From contig NW_003145767.1 in assembly GCF_000003605.2 (NCBI RefSeq), forward strand, positions 1-53,955: DNA of 53,955 nucleotides. The letters are read 5' to 3'. A model generated the notes under the pieces. It was not told the DNA's origin, ran no database searches, and was given only the letters and a program-made list of their open reading frames with translations. The translations under genes and the position numbers were made by a program. Source of the stretch: Saccoglossus kowalevskii (Eukaryota > Hemichordata > Enteropneusta > Harrimaniidae). This document shows, one piece after another, positions 4,755 through 53,172 of this stretch; position 1 is the first letter of the stretch; the number at the start of each line of letters is the position of its first letter.

Positions 4755-4762
4755 TACATGTA
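4755..4762. other. TACATGTA insertion, context I
   Basis: CATGTA is gained at the TA of CCATA|TTATGG. The context (CATGTATAACGCG, CATATTAAGG, ATACTGCACC, insertion, CATGTATACCACACC) is shared with 22138, 33562 and 46200, so these four are probably one event copied by satellite amplification. Confidence 0.6.
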
Positions 4763-5102
4763 TTATGGACGTTAATTTTGGCATGTATACCACACCATAT
4801 TATGGACGTTAATTTTGGCATGGATACAACGCCATATTAGGGACGTTAATTTTGGCATAGATACCGCGCCATATTATGGACGTTAATTTTGGCATGGGTT
4901 CGTGCCATATTATGGACGTTAATTTTGGCATGGATACCGCGCCATATTATGGACGTTAATATTGGCATGGATCAGCGCCATATTATGGACGTTAATTTTG
5001 GCATGGATACCGCGCCATATTATGGACGTTAATTTTGGCATGGATACCACGCCACATTATGGACGTTAATTTTGGCATGGCACTGCTCCATATTATGGAC
5101 AT

Positions 5103-5110
5103 TACATGTA
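5103..5110. other. TACATGTA insertion, context V
   Basis: CATGTA is gained at the TA in GACATTA|ATTTTGG, a different monomer position from context I. The next linker is GATACCGTACC. Copies lie at 22487 and 46549, with a changed one at 33911. An empty relative (GACATTAATTTTGG followed by GATACCGTACC) has its TA at 7944-7945. Confidence 0.6.
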
Positions 5111-5715
5111 ATTTTGGCATGGATACCGTACCATATTATGGACGTTAATTTTGGCATGGATCCGCGCCATATTATGGACGTTTATTTTGGCATGGATACC
5201 ACGCCATATTATGGACGTTAATTTTGGCATGGATAGCACATCATATTATGGACGTTAATTTTGGCATTGATCCGTGCCATATTATGGACGTTAATTTTGG
5301 CATGGATCCGTGCCATATTATGGACGTTAATTTTGGCATTGATCCGCGCCATATTATGGACATTAATTTTGGCATGGATACCGCGCCATATTATGGACGT
5401 TAATTTTGGCATGGATACCGCGCCATATTATGAACGGTAATTTTGGCATGGATACCGCGCCATATTATGGACGTTAATTTTGGCATGGATACCGCGCCAT
5501 ATTATGGACGTTAATTTTGGCATGGACACTGCACCATATTATGGATGTTAATTTTGGCATGGATCCGCACCACATTATGGACGGTAATTTTGGCATGGAT
5601 CCGTGCCATATTATGGACGTTAATTTTGGAATGGATACCGCTCCATATTATGGACGTTAATTTTGGCATGGATACCGCACCATATTATGGACGTTAATTT
5701 TGGCATGGATCCACG

Positions 5716-8587
5716 CCATATTTTGGATGTTAATTTTGGCATGGATACCACGCCATATTATGGACGTTAATTTTGGCATGGATACCGCGCCATATTATGG
5801 ACGTTAATTTTGGCATGGATACCGCGCCATATTATGGACATTAATTTTGGCATGGATCCGCGCCATATTATGGACGTTAATTTTGGCATGGATCCGCACC
5901 ATATTATGGACGTTAATTTTGGCATGGATACCGCGCCATATTATGGACGTTAATTTTGGCATGGATACCGCGCCATATTATGGACGTTAATTTTGGCATG
6001 GATACCGTGCCATATTATGGACGTTAATTTTGGCATTGATACCGCGCCATATTATGGACGTTAATTTTGGCATTAATACTGCACCATATTATGGACGTTA
6101 ATTTTGGCATGGATACCGCGCCATATTATGGACGTTAATTTTGGCATGGATACCGTGCCATATTATGGACGTTAATTTTGGCATGGATACCGTGCCATAT
6201 TATGGACGTCAATTTTAGCATGGACACCGCACCATATTATGGACGTTAATTTTGGCATGGATACCGCACCATATTATGGACGTTAATTTTGGCATGGATA
6301 ACGTGCCATATTATGGATGTTAATTTTGGCATGGATACCACGCCATATTATGGACGTTAATTTTGGCATGTATACCACGCCATATTATGGACGTTAATTT
6401 TGGCATGGATACCACGCCATATTATGGACGTTAATTTTGGCATGGATACCGCGCCATATTATGGACGTTAATTTTGGCATGGATACCGCGCCATATTATG
6501 GACGTTTATTTTGGCATGGATACCGCGCCATATTATGGATGTTAATTTTGGCATGGATACCGCACCATATTATGGACGTTAATTTTGGCATGGGTCCGTG
6601 CCATATTATGGACGTTAATTTTGGCATGGATCCGCGCCATATTATGGACGTTAATTTTGGCATGGATACCACACCATATTATGGACGTTAATTTTGGCAT
6701 GGATAGCACATCATATTATGGACGTTAATTTTGGCATGGATCCGCGCCATATTATGGACGTTAATTTTTTTCATGGATCCGCGCCATATTATGGACGTTA
6801 ATTTTAGCATTGATCCGCGCCATATTATGGACGTTAATTTTGGCATGGATACCGCGCCATATTATGGACGTTAATTTTGGCATGGATACCGCGCCATATT
6901 ATGAACGGTAATTTTGGCATGGATACCGCGCCATATTATGGACGTTAATTTTGGCATGGATACCGTGCCATATTACTGTATGGACGTTAATTTTGGCATG
7001 GATACCGCGCCATATTATGGGACGTTAATTTTGGCATGGATACCACGCCATATTTATGGACATTAATTTTGGCATGGATACCGTACCATATTATGGACGT
7101 TAATTTTGGCATGGATCCGCGCCATATTATGGACGTTAATTTTGGCATGGATACCACGCCATATTATGGACGTTAATTTTGGCATGGATAGCACATCATA
7201 TTATGGACGTTAATTTTGGCATGGATCCGTGCCATATTATGGACGTTAATTTTGGCATGGATCCGCGCCATATTATGGACGTTAATTTTGGCATTGATCC
7301 GCGCCATATTATGGACATTAATTTTGGCATGGATACCGCGCCATTTTATGGACGTTAATTTTGGCATGGATACCGCACCATATTATGAACGGTAATTTTG
7401 GCATGGATACCGCGCCATATTATGGACGTTAATTTTGGCATGGATACCGCGCCATATTATGGACGTTAATTTTGGCATGGACACTGCACCATATTATGGA
7501 CGTTAATTTTGGCATGGATCCGCACCACATTATGGACGGTAATTTTGGCATGGATCCGTGCCATATTATGGACGTTAATTTTGGCATGGATACCACGCCA
7601 TATTATGGACGTTAATTTTGGCATAGATACCGCGCCATATTATGGACATTAATTTTGGCATGTATACCACGCCATATTATGGACGTTATTTTTGGCGTGG
7701 ATACCACGCCATATTATGAACGTTAATTTTGGCATGGGTCCGTGCCATATTATGGACGTTAATTTTGGCATGGATACCACGCCATATTATGGACGTTAAT
7801 ATTGGCATGGATCAGCGCCATATTATGGACGTTAATTTTGGCATGGATACCGCGCCATATTATGGACGTTAATTTTGGCATGGATACCACGCCATATTAT
7901 GGACGTTAATTTTGGCATGGACACCGCACCATATTATGGACATTAATTTTGGCATGGATACCGTACCATATTATGGACGTTAATTTTGGCATGGATCAGC
8001 GCCATATTATGGACGTTAATTTTGGCATGGATACCACGCCATATTATGGACGTTAATTTTGGCATGGATAGCACATCATATTATGGACGTTAATTTTGGC
8101 ATGGATCCGCGCCATATTATGGACGTTAATTTTGGCATGGATCCGCGCCATATTATGGACGTTAATTTTGGCATTGATCCGCGCCATATTATGGACGTTA
8201 ATTTTGGCATGGATACCGCGCCATATTATGGACATTAATTTTGGCATGGATACCGCGCCATATTATGAACGGTAATTTTGGCATGGATACCGCGCCATAT
8301 TATGGACGTTAATTTTGGCATGGATACCACGCCATATTATGGACGTTAATTTTGGCATGGATACCGCACCATATTATGGACGTTAATTTTGGCATGGACA
8401 CTGCACCATATTATGGACGTTAATTTTGGCATGGATCCGCACCACATTATGGACGGTAATTTTGGCATGGATCCGTGCCATATTATGGACGTTAATTTTG
8501 GAATGGATACCGCTCCATATTATGGACGTTAATTTTGGCATGGATACCGCACCATATTATGGACGTTAATTTTGGCATGGATCCGCG
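5716..8587 (+). repeat. HOR copy, 2,872 bp between landmark monomers
   Basis: It starts at a CCATATTTTGGATG landmark monomer and runs to the next one. Its first kilobase follows the order of the 40458 unit: GACATT monomer, CATTGATACC, CATTAATACTGCACC, GTCAATTTTAG (near 6207), GATAACGTG, CATGTATACC, GTTTATT, GGGTCCGTG. It departs from that order near 6620 and is longer than the 2.0-2.3 kb units at 38-45 kb, so it holds extra internally duplicated monomers. It contains a TACTGTA insertion at 6974. No gene. Confidence 0.75.
6974..6980. other. TACTGTA insertion (5-bp gain)
   Basis: CCATATTATGG reads CCATATTACTGTATGG, a gain of CTGTA at the second TA of the monomer head. TA-CTG-TA has the form of the three-nucleotide scar described for Sleeping Beauty-type Tc1 transposons. 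It occurs once in the window. Confidence 0.55.
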
Positions 8588-8942
8588 CCATATTTTGGAT
8601 GTTAATTTTGGCATGGATACCGCGCCATATTATGGACGTTAATTTTGGCATGGATACCGCGCCATATTATGGACGTTAATTTTGGCATGGATACCGCGCC
8701 ATATTATGGACATTAATTTTGGCATGGATCCGCGCCATATTATGGACGTTAATTTTGGCATGGATCCGCACCATATTATGGACGTTAATTTTGGCATGGA
8801 TACCGCGCCATATTATGGACGTTAATTTTGGCATGGATACCGCGCCATATTATGGACGTTAATTTTGGCATGGATACCGTGCCATATTATGGACGTTAAT
8901 TTTGGCATTGATACCGCGCCATATTATGGACGTTAATTTTGG

Positions 8943-10223
8943 CATTAATACTGCACCATATTATGGACGTTAATTTTGGCATGGATACCGCGCCATATTA
9001 TGGACGTTAATTTTGGCATGGATACCGCGCCATATTATGGACGTCAATTTTAGCATGGACACCGCACCATATTATGGACGTTAATTTTGGCATGGATACC
9101 GCACCATATTATGGACGTTAATTTTGGCATGGATACCGTGCCATATTATGGACGTTAATTTTGGCATGGATAACGCGCCATATTATGGACGTTAATTTTG
9201 GCATGGATACCACGCCATATTATGGATGTTAAATTTGGCATGTATACCACGCCATATTATGGACGTTAATTTTGGCATGGATACCACGCCATATTATGGA
9301 CGTTAATTTTGGCATGGATACCGCGCCATATTATGGACGTTAATTTTGGCATGGATACCGCGCCATATTATGGACATTTATTTTGGCATGGATACCGCGC
9401 CATATTATGGACGTTAATTTTGGCATGGATAGCACATCATATTATGGACGTTAATTTTGGCATGGATACCACGCCATATTATGGACATTAATTTTGGCAT
9501 GGATAGCACATCATATTATGGACGTTAATTTTGGCATGGATTCGCACCATATTATGGACGTTAATTTTGGCATGGATCCGCGCCATATTATGAACGTTAA
9601 TTTTGGCATGGATCCGCGCCATATTATGGACGTTAATTTTGGCATGGATACCGCGCCATATTATGGACGTTAATTTTGGCATGGATACCGCGCCATATTA
9701 TGGACGTTATTTTTGGCATGGACACTGCACAATATTATGGACGTTAATTTTGGCATGGATCCGCACCACATTATGGACGGTAATTTTGGCATGGATCCGT
9801 GCCATATTATGGACGTTAATTTTGGCATGGATACGACGCCATATTATGGACGTTAATTTTGGCATGGATACCGTGCCATATCATGGATGTCAATTTTAGT
9901 ATGGACACCGCACCATATTATGGACGTTAATTTTGGCATGGATACCGCACCATATTATGAACGTTAATTTTGGCATGGATACCGTGCCATATTATGGACG
10001 TTAATTTTGGCATGGATAACGCGCCATATTATGGACATTAATTTTGGCATGGATACCACACCATATTATGGATGTTAATTTTGGCATGTATACCACGCCA
10101 TATTATGAACGTTAATTTTGGCATGGATACCAAGCCATATTATGGACGTTAATTTTGGCATGGATACCGCGCCATATTATGGACGTTAATTTTGGCATGC
10201 ATACCGCGCCATATTATGGACGT
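8943..10223 (+). repeat. Segment duplicated at +20,071 bp (copy 1)
   Basis: The monomer order and private variants match 29014-30294 at a constant offset of 20,071 bp, including the unusual GGCATGCATACC monomer at 10194 and the TTTTAGTATGG monomer near 9890. The two diverge just after 10223, where this copy enters a GTTTATT monomer and the other does not. A few single-base differences are visible, for example GTTAAATTTGG near 9231 here against GTTAATTTTGG there. Confidence 0.85.
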
Positions 10224-11018
10224 TTATTTTGGCATGGATACCGCGCCATATTATGGATGTTAATTTTGGCATGGATACCGCACCATATTATGGACGTTAA
10301 TTTTGGCATGGGTCCGTGCCATATTATGGACGTTAATTTTGGCATGGATACTGCGCCATATTATGGACGTTAATTTTGGCATGGATCAGCGCCATATTAT
10401 GGACGTTAATTTTGGCATGGATACCGCGCCATATTATGGACGTTAATTTTGGCATGGATACCACGCCATATTATGGACGTTAATTTTGGCATGGACACCG
10501 CACCATATTATGGACGTTAATTTTGGCATGGATACCACGCCATATTATGGACGTTAATTTTGGCATGGATACCACGCCATATTATGGACGTTAATTTTGG
10601 CATGGATTCGCACCATATTATGGACGTTAATTTTGGCATGGATCCGCGCCATATTATGGACGTTAATTTTGGCATGGATACCGCGCCATATTATGGACGT
10701 AAATTTTGGCATGTATACCACACCATATTATGGACGTTAATTTTGGCATGGATACCGCGCCCTATTATGGACGTTAATTTTGGCATGGATACCGCGCCAT
10801 ATTATGGACGTTAATTTTGGCATGGATGCCGCACCATATTATGGACGTTAATTTTGGCATGGATCCGCACCATATTATGGACGGTAATTTTGGCATGGAT
10901 CCGTGCCATATTATGGACGTTAATTTTGGAATGGATACCGCTCCATATTATGGACGTTAATTTTGGCATGGATACCGCACCATATTATGGATGTTAATTT
11001 TGGCATGGATCCGCGCCA

Positions 11019-11026
11019 TACATGTA
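11019..11026. other. TACATGTA insertion, unique context VI
   Basis: CATGTA is gained in CCATA|TTTTGGACG. The paralogous monomer with its TA at 13389-13390 is empty. The offset between the two segments is 2,370 bp here and 2,364 bp at the next landmark (11281 and 13645), matching a 6-bp gain. Confidence 0.65.
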
Positions 11027-11280
11027 TTTTGGACGTTAATTTTGGCATGGATACCGCATCATATTATGTACGTTAATTTTGGCATGGATCCGCGCCATAT
11101 TATGGACATTAATTTTGGCATGGATCCGAGCCATATTATGGACGTTAATTTTGGCACAGATCCGCGCCATATTATGGACGTTAATTTTGGCATGTAAACC
11201 ACGCCATATTATCTACGTTAATTTTGGCGTGGATACCACGCCATATTATGGATGTTAATTTTGGCATGGATACCGCGCCA

Positions 11281-11288
11281 TACATGTA
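11281..11288. other. TACATGTA insertion, context II
   Basis: CATGTA is gained at CCATA|TTATGG after a GCGTGGATACCACG and GGATG monomer pair. The same context occurs at 13645, 42226, 48637 and 49414. Confidence 0.6.
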
Positions 11289-13345
11289 TTATGGACGTTA
11301 ATTTTGGCATGTATACCACGCCATATTATGGACGTTAATTTTGGCATGGATACCACGCCATATTATGGACGTTAATTTTGGCATTAATACTGCACCATGT
11401 TATGGACGTTAATTTTGGCATGGATACCACGCCATATTATGGACGTTAATTTTGGCATGGATAGCACATCATATTATGGACGTTAATTTTGGCATGGATT
11501 CGCACCATATTATGGACGTTAATTTTGGCATGGATCCGCGCCATATTATGGACGTTAATTTTGGCATGGATACCGCGCCATATTATGGACGTTAATTTTG
11601 GCATGGATACCGCGCCATATTATGGACGGTAATTTTGGCATGGATACCGCGCCATATTATGGACGGTAATTTTGGCATGGATACCGCGCCATATTAAGGA
11701 CGTTAATTTTGGCATGGATACCGCGCCATATTATGGACGTTAATTTTGGCATGGACGCCGCACCATATTATGGACATTAATTTTGGCATGGATCCGCACC
11801 ATATTATGGACGGTAATTTTGGCATGGATACCGCACCATATTATGGACGTTAATTTTGGCATGGATAACGCGCCATATTATGGACGTTAATTTTGGCATG
11901 GATACCACGCCATATTATGGACGTTAATTTTGGCATGTATACCACGCCATATTATGGACGTTAATTTTGGCATGAATACCACGCCATATTATGGACGTTA
12001 ATTTTGGCATGGATACCGTGCCATATTATGGACGTTAATTTTGGCATGGATACCGCGCCATATTATGGACGTTTATTTTGGCATGGATACCGCGCCATAT
12101 TATGGATGTTAATTTTGGCATGGATACCGCACCATATTATGGACGTTAATTTTGGCATGGGTCCGTGCCATATTATGAACGTTAATTTTGGCATGGATAC
12201 TGCGCTATATTATGGACGTTAATTTTGGCATGGATCAGCGCCATATTATGGACGTTAATTTTGGCATGGATACCGCGCCATATTATGGACGTTAATTTTG
12301 GCATGGATACCACGCCATATTATGGACGTTAATTTTGGCATGGACACCGCACCATATTATGGACGTTAATTTTGGCATGGATACCACGCCATATTATGGA
12401 CGTTAATTTTGGCATGGATAGCGCATCATATTATGGACGTTAATTTTGGCATGGATTCGCACCATATTATGGACGTTAATTTTGGCATGGATCCGCGCCA
12501 TATTATGGACGTTAATTTTGGCATGGATACCGCGCCATATTATGGACGTAAATTTTGGCATGGATACCGCGCCATATTATGGACGGTAATTTTGGCATGG
12601 ATACCGCGCCATATTATGGACGTTAATTTTGGCATGGATACCGCGCCATATTATGGACGTTAATTTTGGCATGGATACCGCGCCATATTATGGACGTTAA
12701 TTTTGGCATGGACGCCGCACCATATTATGGACGTTAATTTTGGCATGGATCCGCACCATATTATGGACGGTAATTTTGGCATGGATCCGTGCCATATTAT
12801 GGACGTTAATTTTGGAATGGATACCGCTCCATATTATGGACGTTAATTTTGGCATGGATACCGCACCATATTATGGATGTTAATTTTGGTATGGATACCA
12901 CGCCATATTATGGACGTTAATTTTGGCATGGATTCGCACCATATTATGGACGTTAATTTTGGCATGGATTCGCGCCATATTATGGACGTTAATTTTGGCA
13001 TGGATACCGCGCCATATTATGGACGTAAATTTTGGCATGGATACCGCGCCATATTATGGACGGTAATTTTGGCATGGATACCGCGCCATATTATGGACGT
13101 TAATTTTGGCATGGATACCGCGCCATATTATGGACGTTAATTTTGGCATGGATACCGCGCCATATTATGGACGTTAATTTTGGCATGGATGCCGCACCAT
13201 ATTATGGACGTTAATTTTGGCATAGATCCGCACCATATTATGGACGGTAATTTTGGCATGGATCCGTGCCATATTATGGACGTTAATTTTGGAATGGATA
13301 CCGCTCCATATTATGGACGTTAATTTTGGCATGGATACCGCACCA

Positions 13346-13354
13346 TACAATGTA
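13346..13354. other. TACAATGTA insertion (7-bp gain)
   Basis: CCATATTATGGATG reads CCATACAATGTATTATGG. The related segment at +28,588 bp has a plain TA at 41934-41935, and the offset falls to 28,581 bp downstream, so the gain is exactly seven bases. Confidence 0.6.
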
Positions 13355-13644
13355 TTATGGATGTTAATTTTGGCATGGATCCGCGCCATATTTTGGACGT
13401 TAATTTTGGCATGGATACCGCATCATATTATGTACGTTAATTTTGGCATGGATCCGCGCCATATTATGGACATTAATTTTGGCATGGATCCGAGCCATAT
13501 TATGGACGTTAATTTTGGCACAGATCCGCGCCATATTATGGACGTTAATTTTGGCATGTAAACCACGCCATATTATCTACGTTAATTTTGGCGTGGATAC
13601 CACGCCATATTATGGATGTTAATTTTGGCATGGATACCGCGCCA

Positions 13645-13652
13645 TACATGTA
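13645..13652. other. TACATGTA insertion, context II
   Basis: This is a copy of the context II site, and the following monomer ends CATGTATACCATGCC. It is the partner of 42226 at an offset of 28,581 bp. Confidence 0.6.
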
Positions 13653-13705
13653 TTATGGACGTTAATTTTGGCATGTATACCATGCCATATTATGGACGTT
13701 AATTT

Positions 13706-13724
13706 TGGCATGGATACCATGCCA
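13706..13724. repeat. Perfect inverted repeat in linker (8-bp arms)
   Basis: TGGCATGG-ATA-CCATGCCA is a perfect hairpin with a 3-base loop. The usual linker (ACCGCGCC) gives the same fold with one mismatch and one G-T pair. Both bases that complete it are CpG transitions (CGCG to CATG). Confidence 0.7.
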
Positions 13725-13852
13725 TATTATGGACGTTAATTTTGGCATGGACACCGCACCATATTATGGACGTTAATTTTGGCATGGATACCACGCCATA
13801 TTATGGACGTTAATTTTGGCATGGATAGCACATCATAATATGGACGTTAATT

Positions 13853-15200
13853 TTGGCATGGATTCGCACCATATTATGGACGTTAATTTTGGCATGGATC
13901 CGCGCCATATTATGGACGTTAATTTTGGCATGATACCGCGCCATATTATGGACGTTAATTTTGGCATGGACACTGCACCATATTATGGACGTTAATTTTG
14001 GCATGGATCCGCACCACATTATGGACGGTAATTTTGGCATGGATCCGTGCCATATTATGGACGTTAATTTTGGCATGGATAGCACATCATATTATGGACG
14101 TTAATTTTGGCATGGATCCGCGCCATATTATGGACGTTAATTTTGGCATGGATCCGCGCCATATTATGGACGTTAATTTTGGCATTGATCCGTGCCATAT
14201 TATGGACGTTAATTTTGGCATGGATACCGCGCCATATTATGGACGTTAATTTTGGCATGGATACCGCGCCATATTATGAACGGTAATTTTGGCATGGATA
14301 CCACGCCATATTATGGACGTTAATTTTGGCATGGATACCGCGCCATATTATGGACGTTAATTTTGGCATGGATACCGTGCCATATTATGGACGTTAATTT
14401 CGGCATGGACACTGCACCATATTATGGACGTTAATTTTGGCATGGATCCGCACCACATTATAGACGGTAATTTTGGCATGGATCCGTGCCATATTATGGA
14501 CGTTAATTTTGGAATGGATACCGCTCCATATTATGGACGTTAATTTTGGCATGGATACCGCACCATATTATGGACGTTAATTTTGGCATGGATCCGCGCC
14601 ATATTTTGGATGTTAATTTTGGCATGGATACCACGCCATATTATGGACGTTAATTTTGGCATGGATACCGCGCCATATTATGGACGTTAATTTTGGCATG
14701 GATACCGCGCCTTATTATGGACATTAATTTTGGCATGGATCCGCGCCATATTATGGACGTTAATTTTGGCATGGATCCGCACCATATTATGGACGTTAAT
14801 TTTGGCATGGATACCGCGCCATATTATGGACGTTAATTTTGGCATGGATACCGCGCCATATTATGGACGTTAATTTTGGCATGGATACCGTGCCATATTA
14901 TGGACGTTAATTTTGGCATTGATACCGCGCCATATTATGGACGTTAATTTTGGCATTAATACTGCACCATATTATGGACGTTAATTTTGGCATGGATACC
15001 GCGCCATATTATGGACGTTAATTTTGGCATGGATACTGCGCTATATTATGGACGTTAATTTTTGGCATGGATACCGCGCCATATTATGGACGTCAATTTT
15101 AGCATGGACACCGCACCATATTATGGACGTTAATTTTGGCATGGATACCGCACCATATTATGGATGTTAATTTTGGCATGGATAACGTGCCATATTATGG
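13853..15200 (+). repeat. Segment duplicated at about +3,485 bp (copy 1)
   Basis: It matches 17339-18684 monomer by monomer for about 1.35 kb. Shared rare features include AATTTCGGCATGG, GCCTTATTATGG and CCACATTA monomers. The offset changes by single bases where one copy has a small indel: a missing G near 13932 and an extra T near 15060. Homology ends near 15200, where this copy jumps directly from a GATAACGTG monomer to a GATCAGCG monomer. Confidence 0.85.
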
Positions 15201-16950
15201 ATGTAATTTTGGCATGGATCAGCGCCATATTATGGACGTTAATTTTGCGCATGGATACCGCGCCATATTATGGACGTTAATTTTGGCATGGATACCACGC
15301 CATATTATGGACGTTAATTTTGGCATGGACACCGCACCATATTATGGACGTTAATTTTGGCATGGATACCACGCCATATTATGGACGTTAATTTTGGCAT
15401 GGATAGCACATCATATTATGGACGTTAATTTTGGCATGGATTCGCACCATATTATGAACGTTAATTTTGGCATGGATCCGCGCCATATTATGGACGTTAA
15501 TTTTGGCATGGATACCGCGCCATATTATGGACGTTAATTTTGGCATGGATACCGCGCCATATTATGGACGGTAATTTTGGCATGGATACCGCGCCATATT
15601 ATGGACGGTAATTTTGGCATGGATACCGCGCCATATTATGGACGTTAATTTTGGCATGGATACCGCGCCATATTATGGACGTTAATTTTGGCATGGACGC
15701 CGCACCATATTATGGACATTAATTTTGGCATGGATCCGCATCATATTATGGACGGTAATTTTGGCATGGATACCGCACCATATTATGGACGTTAATTTTG
15801 GCATGGATAACGCGCCATATTATGGATGTTAATTTTGGCATGGATACCACGCCATATTATGGACGTTAATTTTGGCATGTATACCACGCCATATTATGGA
15901 CGTTAATTTTGGCATGAATACCACGCCATATTATGGACGTTAATTTTGGCATGGATACCGCGCCATATTATGGACGTTAATTTTGGCATGGATACCGCAC
16001 CATATTATGGACGTTAATTTTGGCATGGGTCCGTGCCATATTATGGACGTTAATTTTGGCATGGATACTGCGCTATATTATGGACGTTAATTTTGGCATG
16101 GATCAGCGCCATATTATGGACGTTAATTTTGGCATGGATACCGCGCCATATTATGGACGTTAATTTTGGCATGGATACCACGCCATATTATGGACGTTAA
16201 TTTTGGCATGGACACCGCACCATATTATGGACGTTAATTTTGGCATGGATACCACGCCATATTATGGACGTTAATTTTGGCATGGATAGCACATCATATT
16301 ATGGACGTTAATTTTGGCATGAATTCGCACCATATTATGGACGTTAATTTTGGCATGGATCCGCGCAATATTATGGACGTTAATTTTGGCATGGATACCG
16401 CGCCATATTATGGACGTTAATTTTGGCATGGATACCGCTCCATATTATGGACGGTAATTTTGGCATGGATACCGCGCCATATTATGGACGTTAATTTTGG
16501 CATGGATACCGCACCATATTATGGACGTTAATTTTGGCATGGATACCGCGCCATATTATGGACGTTAATTTTGGCATGGACACTGCACCATATTATGGAC
16601 GTTAATTTTGGCATGGATCCGCACCACATTATGGACGGTAATTTTGGCATGGATCCGTGCCATATTATGGACGTTAATTTTGGCATGGATAGCACATCAT
16701 ATTATGGACGTTAATTTTGGCATGGATCCGCGCCATATTATGGACGTTAATTTTGGCATGGATCCGCGCCATATTATGGACGTTAATTTTGGCATGGATC
16801 CGCACCACATTATGGACGGTAATTTTGGCATGGATCCGTGCCATATTATGGACGTTAATTTTGGAATGGATACCGCTCCATATTATGGACGTTAATTTTG
16901 GCATGGATACCGCACCATATTATGGACGTTAATTTTGGCATGGATCCGCG
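14599..16950 (+). repeat. HOR copy, 2,352 bp between landmark monomers
   Basis: The CCATATTTTGGATG landmark at 14599 is followed by the usual block order through GTCAATTTTAG at about 15091. At 15200 nine monomers expected from the 40458 unit (its monomers 17-25) are absent. The order then resumes with GATCAGCG and continues through GATAGCACATCAT, GACGGTAATT and GACGCCGCACC monomers. No gene is present. Confidence 0.75.
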
Positions 16951-36194: not shown

Positions 36195-36304
36195 TTATGG
36201 ACGTTAATTTTGGCATGTATACCACGCCATATTATGGACGTTAATTTTGGCATGGATACCACGCCATATTATGGACGTTAATTTTGGCATAGATACCGTG
36301 CCAT

Positions 36305-42225: not shown

Positions 42226-42233
42226 TACATGTA
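42226..42233. other. TACATGTA insertion, context II
   Basis: It lies in monomer 49 of the reference HOR unit and makes that monomer 43 bp. Units 1 and 3 lack this half of the HOR. Confidence 0.6.
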
Positions 42234-42286
42234 TTATGGACGTTAATTTTGGCATGTATACCATTCCATATTATGGACGTTAATTT

Positions 42287-42305
42287 TGGCATGGATACCA
42301 TGCCA
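42287..42305. repeat. Perfect inverted repeat in linker (8-bp arms)
   Basis: This is the same CCATGCCA linker variant. It lies in monomer 50 of the reference HOR unit, directly after the 43-bp insertion-bearing monomer. Confidence 0.7.
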
Positions 42306-42741
42306 TATTATGGACGTTAATTTTGGCATGGACACCGCACCATATTATGGACGTTAATTTTGGCATGGATACCACGCCATATTATGGACGTTAATTTTGG
42401 CATGGATAGCACATCATAATATGGACGTTAATTTTGGCATGGATTCGCACCATATTATGGACGTTAATTTTGGCATGGATCCGCGCCATATTATGGACGT
42501 TAATTTTGGCATGGATACCGCGCCATATTATGGACGTTAATTTTGGCATGGACACTGCACCATATTATGGACGTTAATTTTGGCATGGATCCGCACCACA
42601 TTATGGACGGTAATTTTGGCATGGATCCGTGCCATATTATGGACGTTAATTTTGGAATGGATACCGCTCCATATTATGGACGTTAATTTTGGCATGGATA
42701 CCGCACCATATTATGGACGTTAATTTTGGCATGGATCCGCG

Positions 42742-44763
42742 CCATATTTTGGATGTTAATTTTGGCATGGATACCACGCCATATTATGGACGTTAATTTT
42801 GGCATGGATACCGCGCCATATTATGGACGTTAATTTTGGCATGGATACCGCGCCATATTATGGACATTAATTTTGGCATGGATCCGCGCCATATTATGGA
42901 CGTTAATTTTGGCATGGATCCGCACCATATTATGGACGTTAATTTTGGCATGGATACCGCGCCATATTATAGACGTTAATTTTGGCATGGATACCGCGCC
43001 ATATTATGGACGTTAATTTTGGCATGGATACTATGCCATATTATGGACGTTAATTTTGGCATTGATACCGCGCCATATTATGGACGTTAATTTTGGCATT
43101 AATACTGCACCATATTATGGACGTTAATTTTGGCATGGATACCGCGCCATATTATGGACGTTAATTTTGGCATGGATACTGTGCCATATTATGGACGTTA
43201 ATTTTGGCATGGATACCGCGCCATATTATGGACGTCAATTTTAGCATGGACACCGCACCATATTATGGACGTTAATTTTGGCATGGATACCGCACCATAT
43301 TATGGACGTTAATTTTGGCATGGATAACGTGCCATATTATGGATGTTAATTTTGGCATGGATACCACGCCATATTATGGACGTTAATTTTGGCATGTATA
43401 CCACGCCATATTATGGACGTTAATTTTGGCATGGATACCACGCCATATTATGGACGTTAATTTTGGCATGGATACCGCGCCATATTATGGACGTTAATTT
43501 TGGCATGGATACCGCGCCATATTATGGACGTTTATTTTGGCATGGATACCGCGCCATATTATGGATGTTAATTTTGGCATGGATACCGCACCATATTATG
43601 GACGTTAATTTTGGCATGGGTCCGTGCCATATTATGGACGTTAATTTTGGCATGGATACTGCGCCATATTATGGACGTTAATTTTGGCATGGATCAGCGC
43701 CATATTATGGACGTTAATTTTGGCATGGATACCACGCCATATTATGGACGTCAATTTTAGCATGGACACCGCACCATATTATGGACGTTAATTTTGGCAT
43801 GGATAACGCGCCATATTATGGATGTTAATTTTGGCATGGATACCACGCCATATTATGGACGTTAATTTTGGCATGTATACCACGCCATATTATGGACATT
43901 AATTTTGGCATGGATACCGCGCCATATTATGGATGTTTATTTTGGCATGGATACCGCGCCATATTATGGATGTTAATTTTGGCATGGATACCGCACCATA
44001 TTATGGACGTTAATTTTGGCATGGGTCCGTGCCATATTGTGGACGTTAATTTTGGCATGGATACTGCGCCATATTATGGACGTTAATTTTGGCATGGACA
44101 CCGCACCATATTATGGACGTTAATTTTGGCATGGATACCACGCCATATTATGGACGTTAATTTTGGCATGGATAGAACATCATAATATGGACGTTAATTT
44201 TGGCATGGATTCGCACCATATTATGGACGTTAATTTTGGCATGGATCCACGCCATATTATGGACGTTAATTTTGGCATGGATACCGCGCCATATTATGGA
44301 CGTTAATTTTGGCATGGACACTGCACCATATTATGGACGTTAATTTTGGCATGGATAGCACATCATATTATGGACGTTAATTTTGGCATGGATCCGCGCC
44401 ATATTATGGACGTTAATTTTGGCATGGATCCGCGCCATATTATGGACGTTAATTTTGGCATTGATCCGTGCCATATTATGGACGTTAATTTTGGCATGGA
44501 TACCGGGCCATATTATAGACGTTAATTTTGGCATGGATACCGTGCCATATTATGGACGTTAATTTCGGCATGGACACTGCACCATATTATAGACGTTAAT
44601 TTTGGCATGGATCCGCACCACATTATGGACGGTAATTTTGGCATGGATCCGTGCCATATTATGGACGTTAATTTTGGAATGGATACCGCTCCATATTATG
44701 GACGTTAATTTTGGCATGGATACCGCACCATATTATGGACGTTAATTTTGGCATGGATCCGCG
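42742..44763 (+). repeat. HOR unit 3 of the regular block, 2,022 bp
   Basis: Monomers 1-26 follow unit 2 closely; at the offset of 2,284 bp only occasional single-base changes appear, for example GATACTATG near 43029. It then re-enters GTCAATTTTAG (second copy near 43750) and repeats part of the first block before taking the second half seen in unit 1. That internal partial repeat is a visible product of unequal exchange. Confidence 0.85.
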
Positions 44764-46199
44764 CCATATTTTGGATGTTAATTTTGGCATGGATACCACG
44801 CCATATTATGGACGTTAATTTTGGCATGGATACCGCGCCATATTATGGACGTTAATTTTGGCATGGATACCGCGCCATATTATGGACATTAATTTTGGCA
44901 TGGATCCGCGCCATATTATGGACGTTAATTTTGGCATGGATCCGCACCATATTATGGACGTTAATTTTGGCATGGATACCGTGCCATATTATAGACGTTA
45001 ATTTTGGCATGGATACCGCGCCATATTATGGACGTTAATTTTGGCATGGATACCGTGCCATATTATGGACGTTAATTTTGGCATTGATACCGCGCCATAT
45101 TATGGACGTTAATTTTGGCATTAATACTGCACCATATTATGGACGTTAATTTTTGGCATGGATACCGCGCCATATTATGGACGTTAATTTTGGCATGGAT
45201 ACTGTGCCATATTATGGATGTTAATTTTGGCATGGATCCGCACCATATTACGGACGTTACTTTTGGCATGGACACCGCACCATATTATGGACGTTAATTT
45301 TGGCATGGATCCGTGCCATATTTTGGACGTTAATTTTGGCATGGATACCGCGCCATATTATGGACGTTAATTTTGGCATGGATACCGCACCATATTATGG
45401 ACATTAATTTTGGCATGGATCCGTGCCATATTTTGGACGTTAATTTTGGCATGGATACCGCGCCATATTATGGACGTTAATTTTGGCATGGATACCGTGC
45501 CATATTATGGACGTTAATTTTGGCATGGATACCACGCCATATTATGGACGTTAATTTTGGCATGGATACCGCATCATATTATGGACGTTAATTTTGGCAT
45601 GATCACCGCACCATATTATGGATGTTAATTTTGGCATGGATCCGCGCCATATTACGGACGTTAATTTTGGCATGGACACCGCACCATATTATGGACGTTA
45701 ATTTTGGCATGGATCCGCACCATATTATGGACGGTAATTTTGGCATGGATCCGTGCCATATTATGGACGTTAATTTTGGAATGGAAACCGCTCCATATTA
45801 TGGACGTTAATTTTGGCATGGATACCGCGCCATATTTTGGACGTTAATTTTGGCATGGATACCGCATCATATTATGTACGTTAATTTTGGCATGGATCCG
45901 CGCCATATTATGGACATTAATTTTGGCATGGATCCGAGCCATATTATGGACGTTAATTTTGGCACAGATCCGCGCCATATTATGGACGTTAATTTTGGCA
46001 TGTAAACCACGCCATATTATGGACGTTTATTTTGGCGTGGATACCACGCCATATTATGGACGTTAATTTTGGCATGGATACCGCGCCATATTATGGACAT
46101 TAATTTTGGCATGGATACCGTGCCATATTATGGACGTTAATTTTGGCATGTATAACGCGCCATATTAAGGACGTTAATTTTGGCAAGGATACCACGCCA

Positions 46200-46207
46200 T
46201 ACATGTA
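46200..46207. other. TACATGTA insertion, context I
   Basis: This is a copy of the context I site, preceded by GGCAAGGATACCACGCC. Confidence 0.6.
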
Positions 46208-46548
46208 TTATGGACGTTAATTTTGGCATGTATACCACACCATATTATGGACGTTAATTTTGGCATGGATACCACACCATATTATGGACGTTAATTTTGG
46301 CATAGATACCGCGCCATATTATGGACGTTAATTTTGGCATGGGTCCGTGCCATATTATGGACGTTAATTTTGGCATGGATACCGCGCCCTATTATGGACG
46401 TTAATATTGGCATGGATCAGCGCCATATTATGGACGTTAATTTTGGCATGGATACCGCTCCATATTATGGACGTTAATTTTGGCATGGATACCACGCCAT
46501 ATTATGGACGTTAATTTTGGCATGGACACTGCTCCATATTATGGACAT

Positions 46549-46556
46549 TACATGTA
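46549..46556. other. TACATGTA insertion, context V
   Basis: This is a copy of the GACATTA site, preceded by GACACTGCTCC as at 5103. Confidence 0.6.
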
Positions 46557-48039
46557 ATTTTGGCATGGATACCGTACCATATTATGGACGTTAAGTTTGG
46601 CATGGATCCGCGCCATATTATGGATGTTAATTTTGGCATGGATACCACGCCATATTATGGACGTTAATTTTGGCATGGATAGAACATCATATTATGGACG
46701 TTAATTTTGGCATGGATCCGTGCCATATTATGGACGTTAATTTTGGCATGGATCCGCGCCATATTATGGACGTTAATTTTGGCATTGATCCGTGCCATAT
46801 TATGGACGTTAATTTTGGCATGGATACCGCGCCATATTATGGACGTTAATTTTGGCATGGATACCGCGCCATATTATGAACGGTAATTTTGGCATGGATA
46901 CCGCGCCATATTATGGACGTTAATTTTGGCATGGATACCGCGCCATATTATGGACGTTAATTTTGGCATGGACACTGCACCATATTATGGACGTTAATTT
47001 TGGCATGGATCCGCACCACATTATGGACGGTAATTTTGGCATGGATACCGTGCCATATTATGGACGTTAATTTTGGCATGGATACCACGCCATATTATGG
47101 ACGTTAATTTTGGCATGGATACCGCATCATATTATGGACATTAATTTTTTGGCATGATCACCGCCATATTATGGGCGTTAATTTTGGCATGGATACCGCG
47201 CCATATTATGGACATTAATTTTGGCATGGATCCGCGCCATATTATGGACGTTAATTTTGGCATGGATCCGCACCATATTATGGACGTTAATTTTGGCATG
47301 GATACCGCGCCATATTATGGACGTTAATTTTGGCATGGATACCGCGCCATATTATGGACGTTAATTTTGGCATGGATACAGTGCCATATTATGGACGTTA
47401 ATTTTGGCATTGATACCGCGCCATATTATGGACGTTAATTTTGGCATTAATACTGCACCATATTATGGACGTTAATTTTGGCATGGATACCGCGCCATAT
47501 TATGGACGTTAATTTTGGCATGGATACCGCGCCATATTATGGACGTCAATTTTAGCATGGACACCGCACCATATTATGGACGTTAATTTTGGCATGGATA
47601 CCGCACCATATTATGGACGTTAATTTTGGCATGGATACCGTGCCATATTATGGACGTTAATTTTGGCATGGATAACGCGCCATATTATGGACGTTAATTT
47701 TGGCATGGATACCACGCCATATTATGGATGTTAATTTTGGCAGGTATACCACGCCATATTATGGACGTTAATTTTGGCATGGGTCCGTGCCATATTATGG
47801 ACGTTAATTTTGGCATGGATACTGCGCCATATTGTGGACGTTAATTTTGGCATGGATCAGCGCCATATTATGGACGTTAATTTTGGCATTAATACTGCAC
47901 CATATTATGGACGTTAATTTTGGCATGGATACCGCGCCATATTATGGACGTTAATTTTGGCATGGATACCGCGCCATATTATGGACGTCAATTTTAGCAT
48001 GGACACCGCACCATATTATGGACGTTAACTTTGGCATGG

Positions 48040-48738
48040 ATAGCACATCATATTATGGACGTTAATTTTGGCATGGATTCGCACCATATTATGGACGTTA
48101 ATTTTGGCATGGATCCGCGCCATATTATGGACGTTAATTTTGGCATGGATACGGCGCCATATTATGGACGTTAATTTTGGCATGGATACCGCGCCATATT
48201 ATGGACGTAAATTTTGGCATGTATACCACACCATATTATGGACGTTAATTTTGGCATGGATACCGCGCCCTATTATGGACGTTAATTTTGGCATGGATAC
48301 CGCGCCATATTATGGACGTTAATTTTGGCATGGATGCCGCACCATATTATGGATGTTAATTTTGGCATGGATCCGCGCCATATTTTGGACGTTAATTTTG
48401 GCATGGATACCGCATCATATTATGTACGTTAATTTTGGCATGGATCCGCGCCATATTATGGACATTAATTTTGGCATGGATCCGAGCCATATTATGGACG
48501 TTAATTTTGGCACAGATCCGCGCCATATTATGGACGTTAATTTTGGCATGTAAACCACGCCATATTATCTACGTTAATTTTGGCGTGGATACCACGCCAT
48601 ATTATGGATGTTAATTTTGGCATGGATACCGCGCCATACATGTATTATGGACGTTAATTTTGGCATGTATACCACGCCATATTATGGACGTTAATTTTGG
48701 CATGGATACCACGCCATATTATGGACGTTAATTTTGGC
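48040..48738 (+). repeat. 777-bp tandem duplication (copy 1)
   Basis: It matches 48817-49515 with no difference noticed by eye over about 700 bp at an offset of exactly 777 bp. The shared set includes GATACGGCGCC (48149 and 48926), GCCCTATTATGG, TTTTGGACG, GGCACAGATCC, TATCTACG and the TACATGTA insertion (48637 and 49414). The unit continues to 48816 with a CATTAATACTGCACCATGTT monomer that copy 2 lacks. This is the freshest-looking tandem duplication in the window. Confidence 0.9.
48637..48644. other. TACATGTA insertion, context II
   Basis: It lies in copy 1 of the 777-bp tandem duplication. Confidence 0.6.
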
Positions 48739-48816
48739 ATTAATACTGCACCATGTTATGGACGTTAATTTTGGCATGGATACCACGCCATATTATGGAC
48801 GTTAATTTTGGCATGG

Positions 48817-49515
48817 ATAGCACATCATATTATGGACGTTAATTTTGGCATGGATTCGCACCATATTATGGACGTTAATTTTGGCATGGATCCGCGCCAT
48901 ATTATGGACGTTAATTTTGGCATGGATACGGCGCCATATTATGGACGTTAATTTTGGCATGGATACCGCGCCATATTATGGACGTAAATTTTGGCATGTA
49001 TACCACACCATATTATGGACGTTAATTTTGGCATGGATACCGCGCCCTATTATGGACGTTAATTTTGGCATGGATACCGCGCCATATTATGGACGTTAAT
49101 TTTGGCATGGATGCCGCACCATATTATGGATGTTAATTTTGGCATGGATCCGCGCCATATTTTGGACGTTAATTTTGGCATGGATACCGCATCATATTAT
49201 GTACGTTAATTTTGGCATGGATCCGCGCCATATTATGGACATTAATTTTGGCATGGATCCGAGCCATATTATGGACGTTAATTTTGGCACAGATCCGCGC
49301 CATATTATGGACGTTAATTTTGGCATGTAAACCACGCCATATTATCTACGTTAATTTTGGCGTGGATACCACGCCATATTATGGATGTTAATTTTGGCAT
49401 GGATACCGCGCCATACATGTATTATGGACGTTAATTTTGGCATGTATACCACGCCATATTATGGACGTTAATTTTGGCATGGATACCACGCCATATTATG
49501 GACGTTAATTTTGGC
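48817..49515 (+). repeat. 777-bp tandem duplication (copy 2)
   Basis: This is the second copy of 48040-48738. Upstream the two differ at once: copy 1 is preceded by GTTAACTTTGG, a private variant. Downstream copy 2 continues into GACACCGCACC instead of CATTAATACTGCACC. Confidence 0.9.
49414..49421. other. TACATGTA insertion, context II
   Basis: It lies in copy 2 of the 777-bp tandem duplication, exactly 777 bp from 48637, which shows that such scars spread by satellite duplication. Confidence 0.6.
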
Positions 49516-49905
49516 ATGGACACCGCACCATATTATGGACGTTAATTTTGGCATGGATACCACGCCATATTATGGACGTTAATTTTGGCATGGATAGCAC
49601 ATCATATTATGGACGTTAATTTTGGCATGGATTCGCACCATATTATGAACGTTAATTTTGGCATGGATCCACGCCATATTATGGACGTTAATTTTGGCAT
49701 GGATACCGCGCCATATTATGGACGTTAATTTTGGCATGGATACCGCGCCATATTATGGACGGTAATTTTGGCATGGATACCGCGCCATATTATGGACGGT
49801 AATTTTGGCATGGATACCGCGCCATATTATGGACGTTAATTTTGGCATGGATACCGCGCCATATTATGGACGTTAATTTTGGCATGGACGCCGCACCATA
49901 TTATG

Positions 49906-50673
49906 GACGTTAATTTTGGCATGGGTCCGTGCCATATTATGGACGTTAATTTTGGCATGGATACTGCGCTATATTATGGACGTTAATTTTGGCATGGATC
50001 AGCGCCATATTATGGACGTTAATTTTGGCATGGATACCGCGCCATATTATGGACGTTAATTTTGGCATGGATACCACGCCATATTATGGACGTTAATTTT
50101 GGCATGGACACCGCACCATATTATGGACGTTAATTTTGGCATGGATACCACGCCATATTATGGACGTTAATTTTGGCATGGATAGCGCATCATATTATGG
50201 ACGTTAATTTTGGCATGGATTCGCACCATATTATGGATGTTAATTTTGGCATGGATCCGCGCCATATTATGGACGTTAATTTTGGCATGGATACCGCGCC
50301 ATATTATGGACGTAAATTTTGGCATGGATACCGCGCCATATTATGGACGGTAATTTTGGCATGGATACCGCGCCATATTATGGACGGTAATTTTGGCATG
50401 GATACCGCGCCATATTATGGACGTTAATTTTGGCATGGATACCGCGCCATATTATGGACGTTAATTTTGGCATGGACGCTGCACCATATTATGGACGTTA
50501 ATTTTGGCATGGATCCGCACCATATTATGGACGGTAATTTTGGCATGGATCCGTGCCATATTATGGACGTTAATTTTGGAATGGATACCGCTCCATATTA
50601 TGGACGTTAATTTTGGCATGGATACCGCACCATATTATGGATGTTAATTTTGGTATGGATACCACGCCATATT
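49906..50673 (+). repeat. Segment duplicated at -22,086 bp (copy 2)
   Basis: This is the partner of 27820-28587. It shares GACGCTGCACC (50476) and TTTTGGTATGG (50649). To the left it is joined to a GACGCCGCACC monomer instead of a GTTTATT monomer, and to the right to GATTCGCACC instead of GATACCGCG, so both edges are clear recombination joints within the satellite. Confidence 0.85.
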
Positions 50674-51177
50674 ATGGATGTTAATTTTGGCATGGATTCG
50701 CACCATATTATGGACATTAATTTTGGCATGGATCCGCGCCATATTATGGACGTTAATTTTGGCATGGACACCGCACCATATTATGGACGTTAATTTTGGC
50801 ATGGATACCACGCCATATTATGGACGTTAATTTTGGCATGGATAGCACATCATAATATGGAAGTTAATTTTGGCATGGATTCGCACCATATTATGGACGT
50901 TAATTTTGGCATGGATCCGCGCCATATTATGGACGTTAATTTTGGCATGGATACCGCGCCATATTATGGACGTTAATTTTGGCATGGACACTGCACCATA
51001 TTATGGACGTTAATTTTGGCATGGATCCGCACCACATTATGGACGGTAATTTTGGCATGGATCCGTGCCATATTATGGACGTTAATTTTGGAATGGATAC
51101 CGCTCCATATTATGGACGTTAATTTTGGCATGGATACCGCACCATATTATGGACGTTAATTTTGGCATGGATCCGCG

Positions 51178-52942
51178 CCATATTTTGGATGTTAATTTTG
51201 GCATGGATACCACGCCATATTATGGACGTTAATTTTGGCATGGATACCGCGCCATATTATGGACGTTAATTTTGGCATGGATACCGCGCCATATTATGGA
51301 CATTAATTTTGGCATGGATCCGCGCCATATTATGGACGTTAATTTTGGCATGGATCCGCACCATATTATGGACGTTAATTTTGGCATGGATACCGCGCCA
51401 TATTATAGACGTTAATTTTGGCATGGATACCGCGCCATATTATGGACGTTAATTTTGGCATGGATACCGTGCCATATTATGGACGTTAATTTTGGCATTG
51501 ATACCGCGCCATATTATGGACGTTAATTTTGGCATTAATACTGCACCATATTATGGACGTTAATTTTGGCATGGATACCGCGCCATATTATGGACGTTAA
51601 TTTTGGCATGGATACTGTGCCATATTATGGACGTTAATTTTGGCATGGATACCGCGCCATATTATGGACGTCAATTTTAGCATGGACACCGCACCATATT
51701 ATGGACGTTAATTTTGGCATGGATACCGCACCATATTATGGACGTTAATTTTGGCATGGATAACGTGCCATATTATGGATGTTAATTTTGGCATGGATAC
51801 CACGCCATATTATGGACGTTAATTTTGGCATGGATACTGCGCCATATTATGGACATTAATTTTGGCATGGATCCGCGCCATATTATGGACGTTAATTTTG
51901 GCATGGATACCGCGCCATATTATGGACGTTAATTTTGGCATGGATACCGTGCCATATTATGGACGTTAATTTTGGCATGGATACCGCGCCATATTATGGA
52001 CGTTAATTTTGGCATGGATACCGTGCCATATTATGGACATTAATTTTGGCATTGATACCGCGCCATATTATGCACGTTAATTTTGGCATTAATACCGCAC
52101 CATATTATGGACGTTAATTTTGGCATGGATGCTGCGCCATATTATGGACGTTAATTTTGGCATGGATACCGCGCCATATTATGGACGTTAATTTTGGCAT
52201 GGATACCGCGCCATATTATGGACGTCAATTTTAGCATGGACACCGCACCATATTATGGACGTTAATTTTAGCATGGATACCGCACCATATTATGAACGTT
52301 AATTTTGGCATGGATACCGTGCCATATTATGGACGTTAATTTTGGCATGGATCCGCGCCATATTATGATGTTAATTTTGGCATAGATCCGCGCCATATTA
52401 TGGACGTTAATTTTGGCATTGATACCGCGCCATATTATGGACGTTAATTTTGGCATAGATACCGCGCCATATTATGAACGGTAATTTTGGCATGGATACC
52501 GCGCCATATTATGGACGTTAATTTTGGCATGGATACCCGCGCCATATTATGGACGTTAATTTTGGCATGGACACTGCACCATATTATGGACGTTAATTTT
52601 GGCATGGATCCGCACCACATTTATGGACGGTAATTTTGGCATGGATCCGTGCCATATTATGGACGTTAATTTTGGCATGGATAGCACATCATATTATGGA
52701 CGTTAATTTTGGCATGGATCCGCGCCATATTATGGACGTTAATTTTGGCATGGATCCGCGCCATATTATGGACGTTAATTTTGGCATGGATCCGCACCAC
52801 ATTATGGACGGTAATTTTGGCATGGATCCGTGCCATATTATGGACGTTAATTTTGGAATGGATACCGCTCCATATTATGGACGTTAATTTTGGCATGGAT
52901 ACCGCACCATATTATGGACGTTAATTTTGGCATGGATCCGCG
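51178..52942 (+). repeat. HOR copy, 1,765 bp between landmark monomers
   Basis: The landmark block runs in standard order to GATAACGTG near 51766. Part of the block is then repeated with variants (CATTGATACC near 52050, CATTAATACC near 52087, a second GTCAATTTTAG near 52225) before the segment matching 16.57-17.18 kb. It holds single-base indels such as CATTATGATG near 52361 and CCACATTTATGG near 52617. No gene. Confidence 0.75.
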
Positions 52943-53172
52943 CCATATTTTGGATGTTAATTTTGGCATGGATACCACGCCATATTATGGACGTTAATTT
53001 TGGCATGGATACCGCGCCATATTATGGACGTTAATTTTGGCATGGATACATGTACCGCGCCATATTATGGACATTAATTTTGGCATGGATCCGCGCCATA
53101 TTATGGACGTTAATTTTGGCATGGATCCGCACCATATTATGGACGTTAATTTTGGCATGGATACCGCGCCAT
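52562..53172 (+). repeat. Segment duplicated at -35,992 bp (copy 2, filled TA site)
   Basis: This is the partner of 16571-17180. It differs from that copy mainly by an extra T near 52621 and by the six-base gain at 53047-53054, where GGATACCGCG has become GGATACATGTACCGCG. Confidence 0.85.

What the first reader, a model, noticed from the sequence alone, without database searches (positions are those of the whole stretch)
4755..53054. Recurrent CATGTA gains at TA dinucleotides look like Tc1/mariner-type excision footprints
Seen: TACATGTA replaces a plain TA at 20 places (4755, 5103, 11019, 11281, 13645, 22138, 22487, 22849, 28804, 30650, 33562, 36181 doubled, 36414, 42226, 46200, 46549, 48637, 49414, 53047, plus the mutated 33911), at three different TAs of the monomer: CCATA, GACATTA and GGATA. 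Two relatives, TACTGTA (6974, a fourth TA) and TACAATGTA (13346), have the same TA-N-TA form. Known: Tc1/mariner transposons target TA, duplicate it, and leave two TAs separated by a few terminal bases on excision; ends beginning CA and ending TG would give TA-CATG-TA. Inference: one or more such elements or their MITEs repeatedly entered and left this satellite, and the scars were then copied by HOR amplification. By context I count about nine separate events. No intact element is in the window.
Basis: partly seen in the sequence, partly recalled or inferred. Interest (0 to 1): 0.85.

Follow-up and report, generated by a model that had tools for sequence, protein, structure and literature searches.

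The report
Likely transposon scars in satellite DNA
A long stretch of short repeated DNA carries the same six-letter addition at many TA sites, most likely scars left where a jumping gene landed and later left, and some scars were then copied along with the repeats; the jumping gene itself was not found.

Summary
Observation confirmed. The window is one 37-bp satellite array, 1466 monomers. Of 40 insertions, 18 are 1-2 bp; all 22 longer ones are TA-N-TA gains at the monomer's four TAs: 19 TACATGTA-type (one mutated), one doubled, one +5, one +7. Over four arrays (2503 monomers), 26 of 26 insertions of 3 bp or more are of this kind. First hits in the window number about seven, not nine: 13 of 16 CCATA scars share a rare linked variant. 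Five further contexts lie on other contigs.

Best reading: excision scars of a TA-targeting DDE transposon, multiplied by array amplification. Transposase sequences and TA-flanked elements with CTG ends exist in the genome. A donor with CA or CATG ends was not found. The outcome is unusually uniform: no 4-bp insertion in four arrays; seven TATATA-form hits elsewhere could not be read. That fits a self-complementary CATG overhang, or joining that keeps both CA overhangs. Not proven: the element is missing.

The parts
8..53953 (+). 37-bp satellite array, consensus CCATATTATGGACGTTAATTTTGGCATGGATACCGCG; fills the whole contig
   Evidence: TRF; contig length equals window; 1466 monomers
4755..4762 (+). 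TACATGTA scar at TA1 (CCATA), amplified family ACD
5103..5110 (+). TACATGTA scar at TA3 (GACATTA), family B
6974..6980 (+). TACTGTA, +5 gain at TA2; same form as the Sleeping Beauty-type footprint
   Evidence: form in PMC3878927
11019..11026 (+). TACATGTA scar at TA1, single; closest relative (98.0%) empty at this TA
11281..11288 (+). TACATGTA scar at TA1, family ACD
13346..13354 (+). TACAATGTA, +7 gain at TA1, single; closest relative (97.7%) empty at this TA
13645..13652 (+). TACATGTA scar at TA1, family ACD
22138..22145 (+). TACATGTA scar at TA1, family ACD
22487..22494 (+). TACATGTA scar at TA3, family B
22849..22856 (+). TACATGTA scar at TA1, family ACD
28804..28811 (+). TACATGTA scar at TA1, single; closest relative (97.1%) empty
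30650..30657 (+). TACATGTA scar at TA1, family ACD
33562..33569 (+). TACATGTA scar at TA1, family ACD by linked variant; closest relatives (95.5%) empty
33911..33918 (+). TACATTTA, mutated scar at TA3, family B
36181..36194 (+). TACATGTACATGTA, doubled scar at TA1 (+12): second hit on a scar TA, or 6-bp slippage
36414..36421 (+). TACATGTA scar at TA1, family ACD
42226..42233 (+). TACATGTA scar at TA1, family ACD
46200..46207 (+). TACATGTA scar at TA1, family ACD
46549..46556 (+). TACATGTA scar at TA3, family B
48637..48644 (+). TACATGTA scar at TA1, family ACD
49414..49421 (+). TACATGTA scar at TA1, family ACD
53047..53054 (+). TACATGTA scar at TA4 (GGATA), single; closest relative (97.4%) empty

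Best explanation
Each TACATGTA is the excision scar of a cut-and-paste DNA transposon (autonomous or MITE) of the TA-targeting IS630/Tc1/mariner kind. Shown here: the gains are real, all at TA dinucleotides, of the form TA-N-TA, nearly all with N = CATG, and several scars were copied with their satellite neighbourhood. Inferred: an element inserted at a TA, duplicating it; its transposase later cut it out, leaving short 3' overhangs of the element's ends on both flanks; end joining fused them. Either the overhang was 4 nt, CATG, which pairs with itself and so heals the same way each time, or it was 2 nt, CA, with both overhangs kept. Odd-length relatives (TACTGTA, TACAATGTA) would be a 3-nt element of the Sleeping Beauty sort and an imprecise or 5-nt joining. 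Unequal exchange or amplification then multiplied scarred segments.
For: 22 of 22 insertions of 5 bp or more in the window, and 26 of 26 of 3 bp or more in four arrays (2503 monomers), are TA-N-TA gains. CATG appears at three different TAs. Closest relatives of the single scars are unscarred at that TA. CCATACATGTATTATGG occurs 32 times in the genome, 13 in the window and 19 on five other contigs, reversed control 0; five contexts read on four of those contigs lack the linked variant of the window's main family. TACATGTATACATGTA and TACATGTA exceed their reversed controls genome-wide, 67 against 4 and 54306 against 29953 per strand. DDE_3 and DDE_1 sequences are present. Four TA-flanked inverted-repeat elements with CTG or CTG/CCG ends were seen (L026, L016, L018, L004), so TA-targeting elements have moved in this genome; a 3-nt CTG overhang would give the 6974 scar. 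A cut backbone with a self-complementary overhang rejoins precisely in the bacterial relative ISY100 (TATATA junction; PMC2170065 passage). Footprints of 2-4 bp are stated for Tc1/mariner (PMC7913693 passage).
Against: No donor element with CA or CATG ends was found. Three junction patterns at TA1 gave 17, 4 and 0 hits, none a resident element: 14 are the substitution variant CCATACACTGG, 1 is the window's +7 scar, 2 lie outside arrays, and the 4 are substitutions. The inverted-repeat scan over nine chosen end types gave one weak CA pair and no CATG. Four-bp insertions, typical of Tc1 in C. elegans soma, are absent in the four arrays. Genome-wide CCATA-YR-TATTATGG gave 9 hits against 4 reversed controls: 2 TACATA, 0 TATGTA, 7 TATATA form, three of these on C1724; none is on a contig where I know the satellite, but satellite contigs were not all listed and none of the 9 was read, so a second, +4 scar type is not excluded. 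The overhangs described for the family in the passages I saw are 2-3 nt, not 4. Array C632 (495 monomers) has no scar. A random sample, 117744 of 200000 letters masked, had 3 TACATGTA against 6 reversed.
Confidence: 0.67

Rival explanations
1. One ancient scar (of any origin) was spread to other monomers by short-tract gene conversion and unequal exchange, so the recurrence is mostly copying, not repeated insertion.
For: 13 of 16 TA1 scars share the linked variant GGCATGTAT, so most copies do descend from one event; scarred copies are up to 99.0% alike over 900 bp; the same family recurs on contig C1260, 3 of 3 scars read. The closest relatives of 33562 are empty although it carries the linked variant, as exchange would give.
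Against: In-register conversion cannot move a scar to another TA of the monomer, yet CATG gains occur at TA1, TA3 and TA4 and a +5 gain at TA2. 11019 and 13346 lie in neighbouring monomers of paralogous segments, each empty in the other.
Confidence: 0.14
2. A transposon-free process: breaks at TA repaired by copying a few bases from nearby satellite (template switching), for example from the CATGTATA of variant monomers.
For: CATGTATA occurs 51 times in the window and lies 27 bp downstream of 12 of the 16 TA1 scars and 33 bp downstream of the doubled one.
Against: For 9 of 22 gains the nearest CATGTATA is more than 280 bp away; the outgoing switch would have no shared bases yet always start at TA; it would not always give TA-CATG-TA at three different TAs; no other inserted stretch of 3 bp or more exists in four arrays. 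The association with CATGTATA is explained by common descent.
Confidence: 0.1
3. Assembly or base-calling artefact.
For: The contig is nothing but satellite, a sequence class that is hard to assemble.
Against: The gain is shared by diverged paralogues and by five other contigs, has a mutated descendant (33911), and spares 495 monomers of another array.
Confidence: 0.03

Closest known systems
Tc1/Tc3 excision footprints (Caenorhabditis elegans)
   Same: TA target, TA duplicated, a few terminal bases left between the two TAs; a 2-nt CA overhang is expected from ends that begin CA (that Tc1 and Tc3 ends begin CA is recalled)
   Different: Typical somatic Tc1 scar is +4 (78%; PMC13148408, passage); here +6 dominates and no 4-bp insertion was seen in four arrays
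Sleeping Beauty / Frog Prince footprint TA-C(A/T)G-TA
   Same: TACTGTA at 6974 has exactly this form (PMC3878927 table passage; another review passage, PMC2874221, writes TAG(T/A)CTA); TA-flanked elements with CTG ends exist in the genome
   Different: +5 not +6; no CCATAC(A/T)GTATTATGG at TA1 in the genome search
ISY100 (IS630/Tc1/mariner, bacterial)
   Same: A self-complementary overhang lets the cut backbone rejoin to one product (TATATA; PMC2170065 passage); the CATG model uses the same logic
   Different: 2-nt overhang TA, not 4-nt CATG; in vitro ligation
[quoted passage not shown]
   Same: Mariner-family element residing in satellite DNA (PMC2581405, start of abstract in listings)
   Different: There the element is present; here only scars, no element

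Membership tests
Tc1/mariner excision footprint | Located at a TA dinucleotide | tested here: met
   22 of 22 gains of 5 bp or more in the window
Tc1/mariner excision footprint | TA duplicated on both sides of a few bases (2-4 bp in PMC7913693, passage) | tested here: met
   TA-CATG-TA and TA-CTG-TA; the +7 form TA-CAATG-TA has 5 bases between, and the mutated copy 33911 has a changed base
Tc1/mariner excision footprint | Product spectrum of the two best-known members (+4 for Tc1, +5 for Sleeping Beauty) | tested here: not met
   +6 dominates; no 4-bp insertion in four arrays; +5 once and zero at TA1 genome-wide; 9 unread +4-like hits elsewhere
Tc1/mariner excision footprint | Donor element with matching terminal bases in the genome | tested here: inconclusive
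   CTG-ended TA elements found; CA/CATG-ended donor not found, but only about 104 kb of unmasked sequence could be scanned for inverted repeats
Tc1/mariner excision footprint | Transposase of the superfamily in the genome | tested here: met
   PF13358 27 matches (26 over cut-off), PF03184 54 matches, some of them pieces of one copy and possibly some host genes; one copy has a 343-aa open frame with DDE_3
Tc1/mariner excision footprint | Filled site seen as an allele or paralogue | tested here: not met
   None found at TA1 with three junction patterns; elements with other ends or at other TAs not covered

The most novel reading that the evidence does not exclude
A TA-targeting transposon whose ends start CATG and whose transposase cuts 4 nt inside would leave a self-complementary overhang and so a single perfect scar, TA-CATG-TA, every time. 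Such scars would have peppered this genome, so that TACATGTA (54306 against 29953 for the reversed control) is largely a fossil record of excisions, and the satellite array is the place where the before-and-after states can be read.
Probability: 0.2. Interest if true: 0.7.

Novelty: new variant of a known kind. Interest (0 to 1): 0.5.

Why it matters
Excision normally hides its own history, because an empty site is only recognisable if the ancestral sequence is known. A satellite gives that ancestor in more than a thousand copies, so scar spectrum, site choice and repair outcome of a transposon can be read from one assembly, and the scars track amplification of array segments. The uniform +6 outcome also asks a concrete question: a cohesive CATG overhang, or end joining that keeps both CA overhangs. 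In the listings of the held library I saw no paper on excision footprints inside satellite monomers (one search lists 15 of 102) or on TACATGTA as a transposon footprint (the three papers with the word are on Phytophthora); the library lacks most subscription journals.

Tried and rejected
Genome-wide enrichment: 20 stretches of 10 kb, 117744 of 200000 letters masked, gave 3 TACATGTA against 6 reversed controls, while the whole genome gives 54306 against 29953. The excess is real but modest and may be clustered.

L024 7990-8089 (TA-CAAATG...TTTG-TA) looked like a CA...TG donor. It matches places on 36 other contigs, but many matches include the 4-5 letters beyond the TA that the query held, so the TA is probably not its target duplication. 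Rejected as donor.

Other rows of the inverted-repeat scans that I did not use: L015 7418-7692, L021 5199-5267, L004 1515-2134, and single weak AC, CC, CA and TG pairs in L022, L014, L015 and L004. One search tried only nine end types.

L033 and L035, two transposase copies 93% alike over 1.6 kb, show no clear inverted ends and no TA at the left boundary, so they could not be matched to the scars; L034-L036 gave no inverted ends.

Left-junction hits (17): 12 on C632 (12 of 12 checked) and 2 on C2027 (both read) are the substitution variant CCATACACTGG, 1 is the window's +7 scar, 1 (C1003) is a single copy outside an array, 1 (C3771) looks like a coding exon. Right-junction hits (4): all substitutions, CCA to CTG.

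The L027 array (C3162) gains TACATGTA by +8 steps, a tandem duplication; not the same process.

The Fisher test printed used 17 TA1 scars instead of 16 and is not relied on. In one search the one-indel expectation (0.05 insertions, 0.02 deletions in the scars) makes it unlikely, not impossible, that +5 and +7 are secondary mutations. The first-hit event list in that call was entered by me, not computed. On recheck I lowered the main odds by 0.01 for the unread TATATA hits.
Full report
What is there. The window is a whole contig of 53,955 bp in an unnamed assembly of 572 Mb in 4830 contigs, and it is one uninterrupted 37-bp satellite, 1466 monomers by wraparound alignment, the two ends partial. 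The monomer has four TA dinucleotides: CCA-TA-TTATGG (TA1), TAT-TA-TGG (TA2), CGT-TA-ATT (TA3) and GGA-TA-CCG (TA4).

Observation. Forty insertions relative to the unit were found. Eighteen are 1-2 bp. The other twenty-two are 5, 6, 7 or 12 bp, and every one is a TA-N-TA gain: fourteen plain, one doubled and one +7 at TA1, one +5 at TA2, three plain and one mutated at TA3, one at TA4. There is nothing at 3, 4 or 8-11 bp. TACATGTA occurs 20 times against 3.42 expected from shuffles, 0 of 100 shuffles reaching 20.

How many events. With scars removed and 450 bp on either side compared, 11019, 13346, 28804 and 53047 have closest relatives 97.1-98.0% alike that are empty at that TA; 6974 has an empty closest relative at 94.6%. 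13 of the 16 TA1 scars sit in monomers with the variant GGCATGTAT, of which there are 51 in the window; I therefore treat these 13 as one amplified scar, although by overall identity the closest relatives of 33562 and of the doubled 36181 are empty. TA3 scars 5103, 22487, 33911 and 46549 are a second amplified family, lying 348-349 bp downstream of four of the 13. First hits in the window: that family, the TA3 family, 11019, 13346, 28804, 53047 and 6974, seven in all, plus the doubling at 36181. This grouping is my judgement.

Elsewhere in the genome. The satellite's 19-base core occurs 2779 times in the genome (listing capped, so not all satellite contigs are known), 823 of them in the window. 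CCATACATGTATTATGG occurs 32 times: 13 in the window, 12 on C1260, 3 on C3504, 2 on C914, 1 each on C1406 and C2943; reversed control 0. I read C632 whole (18,301 bp, 495 monomers, no insertion of 2 bp or more, no scar), C914 1-10000 of 14,475 (270 monomers, one insertion of 2 bp or more, a TA1 scar) and C1260 1-10000 of 26,411 (272 monomers, three, all TA1 scars of the GGCATGTAT family). Short stretches around scars on C3504 (two of three), C1406 and C2943 show four more contexts; these four and the C914 one lack GGCATGTAT. C1260, C3504, C1406 and C2943 were chosen by the +6 pattern and so say little about the spectrum; the window, C632 and C914 were not.

Product spectrum. If scars were made as in C. 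elegans soma, +4 would be typical (78%, PMC13148408 passage). Four-bp insertions are absent in all four arrays. CCATAC(A/T)GTATTATGG gives none. So in what was read the process is nearly uniform: +6, CATG. In Tc1/mariner elements the transposase cuts 2-3 nt inside the 5' ends (PMC2170065 and PMC7827188 passages), and footprints of 2-4 bp are stated (PMC7913693 passage). A 2-nt CA overhang gives CATG only if both overhangs are kept. A 4-nt CATG overhang would pair with itself and always give CATG. ISY100 shows the principle with a TA overhang. I cannot decide between the two.

Looking for the element. PF13358 matches 27 places and PF03184 54 in the genome, some of them pieces of one copy; one DDE_3 copy has a 343-aa open frame. 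Inverted-repeat scans over 94.5 kb and about 104 kb of unmasked, mostly non-satellite sequence (sizes; some loci had been chosen for TACATGTA) found TA-flanked elements in L016 (1002-1214), L018 (3061-3258), L004 (417-627) and L026 (881-1064), ends CTG...CAG in three and CTG...CGG in L026. A search with one of their ends gave 11 rows, 6 of them directly after a TA, from three of these elements (L016, L018, L004) and one more at the edge of L037. With a 3-nt overhang these would leave TACTGTA, the form seen at 6974. A donor for CATG was not seen: no CATG element and one weak CA pair in the scan, and no resident element at TA1 by three junction patterns (readings). Elements at other TAs, or starting CAT with another fourth base, were not tested.

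Genome-wide hint. Against this, the sample had 3 against 6. I hold genome-wide scarring as a lead, not a result.

Verdict. The finding is real and its main reading, scars of TA-targeting transposition, is the most likely (0.67). It is not established, because the filled state and the donor are missing and the product spectrum is not that of the best-known members. Literature: only passages were read of PMC13148408, PMC7913693, PMC3878927, PMC2874221, PMC8834629, PMC2170065, PMC6829131 and PMC7827188; PMC2581405 was seen only in listings. The original Tc1 footprint paper was not held. That Tc1 and Tc3 ends begin CA is recalled.

Noticed in passing
G000 whole genome; L001-L004: TACATGTA is 1.8 times as frequent as its reversed control genome-wide (54306 against 29953), and the double octamer 67 against 4.
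   Followed up: partly
L016 1002-1214, L018 3061-3258, L004 417-627, L037 edge: TA-flanked short inverted-repeat elements of about 200 bp with ends like CTGTGAAATACTTTATTTT, four copies met in about 110 kb; MITE-like, mariner-type target.
   Followed up: partly
L026 881-1064: A 180-bp TA-flanked element with CTG/CGG ends interrupts a 75-bp tandem array whose units hold TACATGTA.
   Followed up: no
G000:C1724 14920, 30626, 32321: CCATATATATTATGG three times on one contig: possibly a +4 TATATA variant of the satellite site, or an unrelated repeat; not read.
   Followed up: no
C632 (L028-L030), C2027 (L039, L040): Recurrent variant CCATACACTGG in place of CCATATTATGG, 12 on C632 and 2 read on C2027. 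Might be a decayed scar or clustered substitutions.
   Followed up: partly
window 8-53953: Monomers come in 37-bp and 36-bp forms (1058 and 369 of 1466 pieces), the short ones mostly lacking one base just after GAT (368 single-base gaps at one column).
   Followed up: no
L033, L035: Two DDE_3 transposase copies 93% alike over 1.6 kb without recognisable inverted ends; L033's protein has a weak PAX-like match below the family cut-off.
   Followed up: partly
L027 (C3162 429101-429900): A different tandem array rich in TACATGTATACATGTA that varies by +8 steps, unlike the satellite scars.
   Followed up: no
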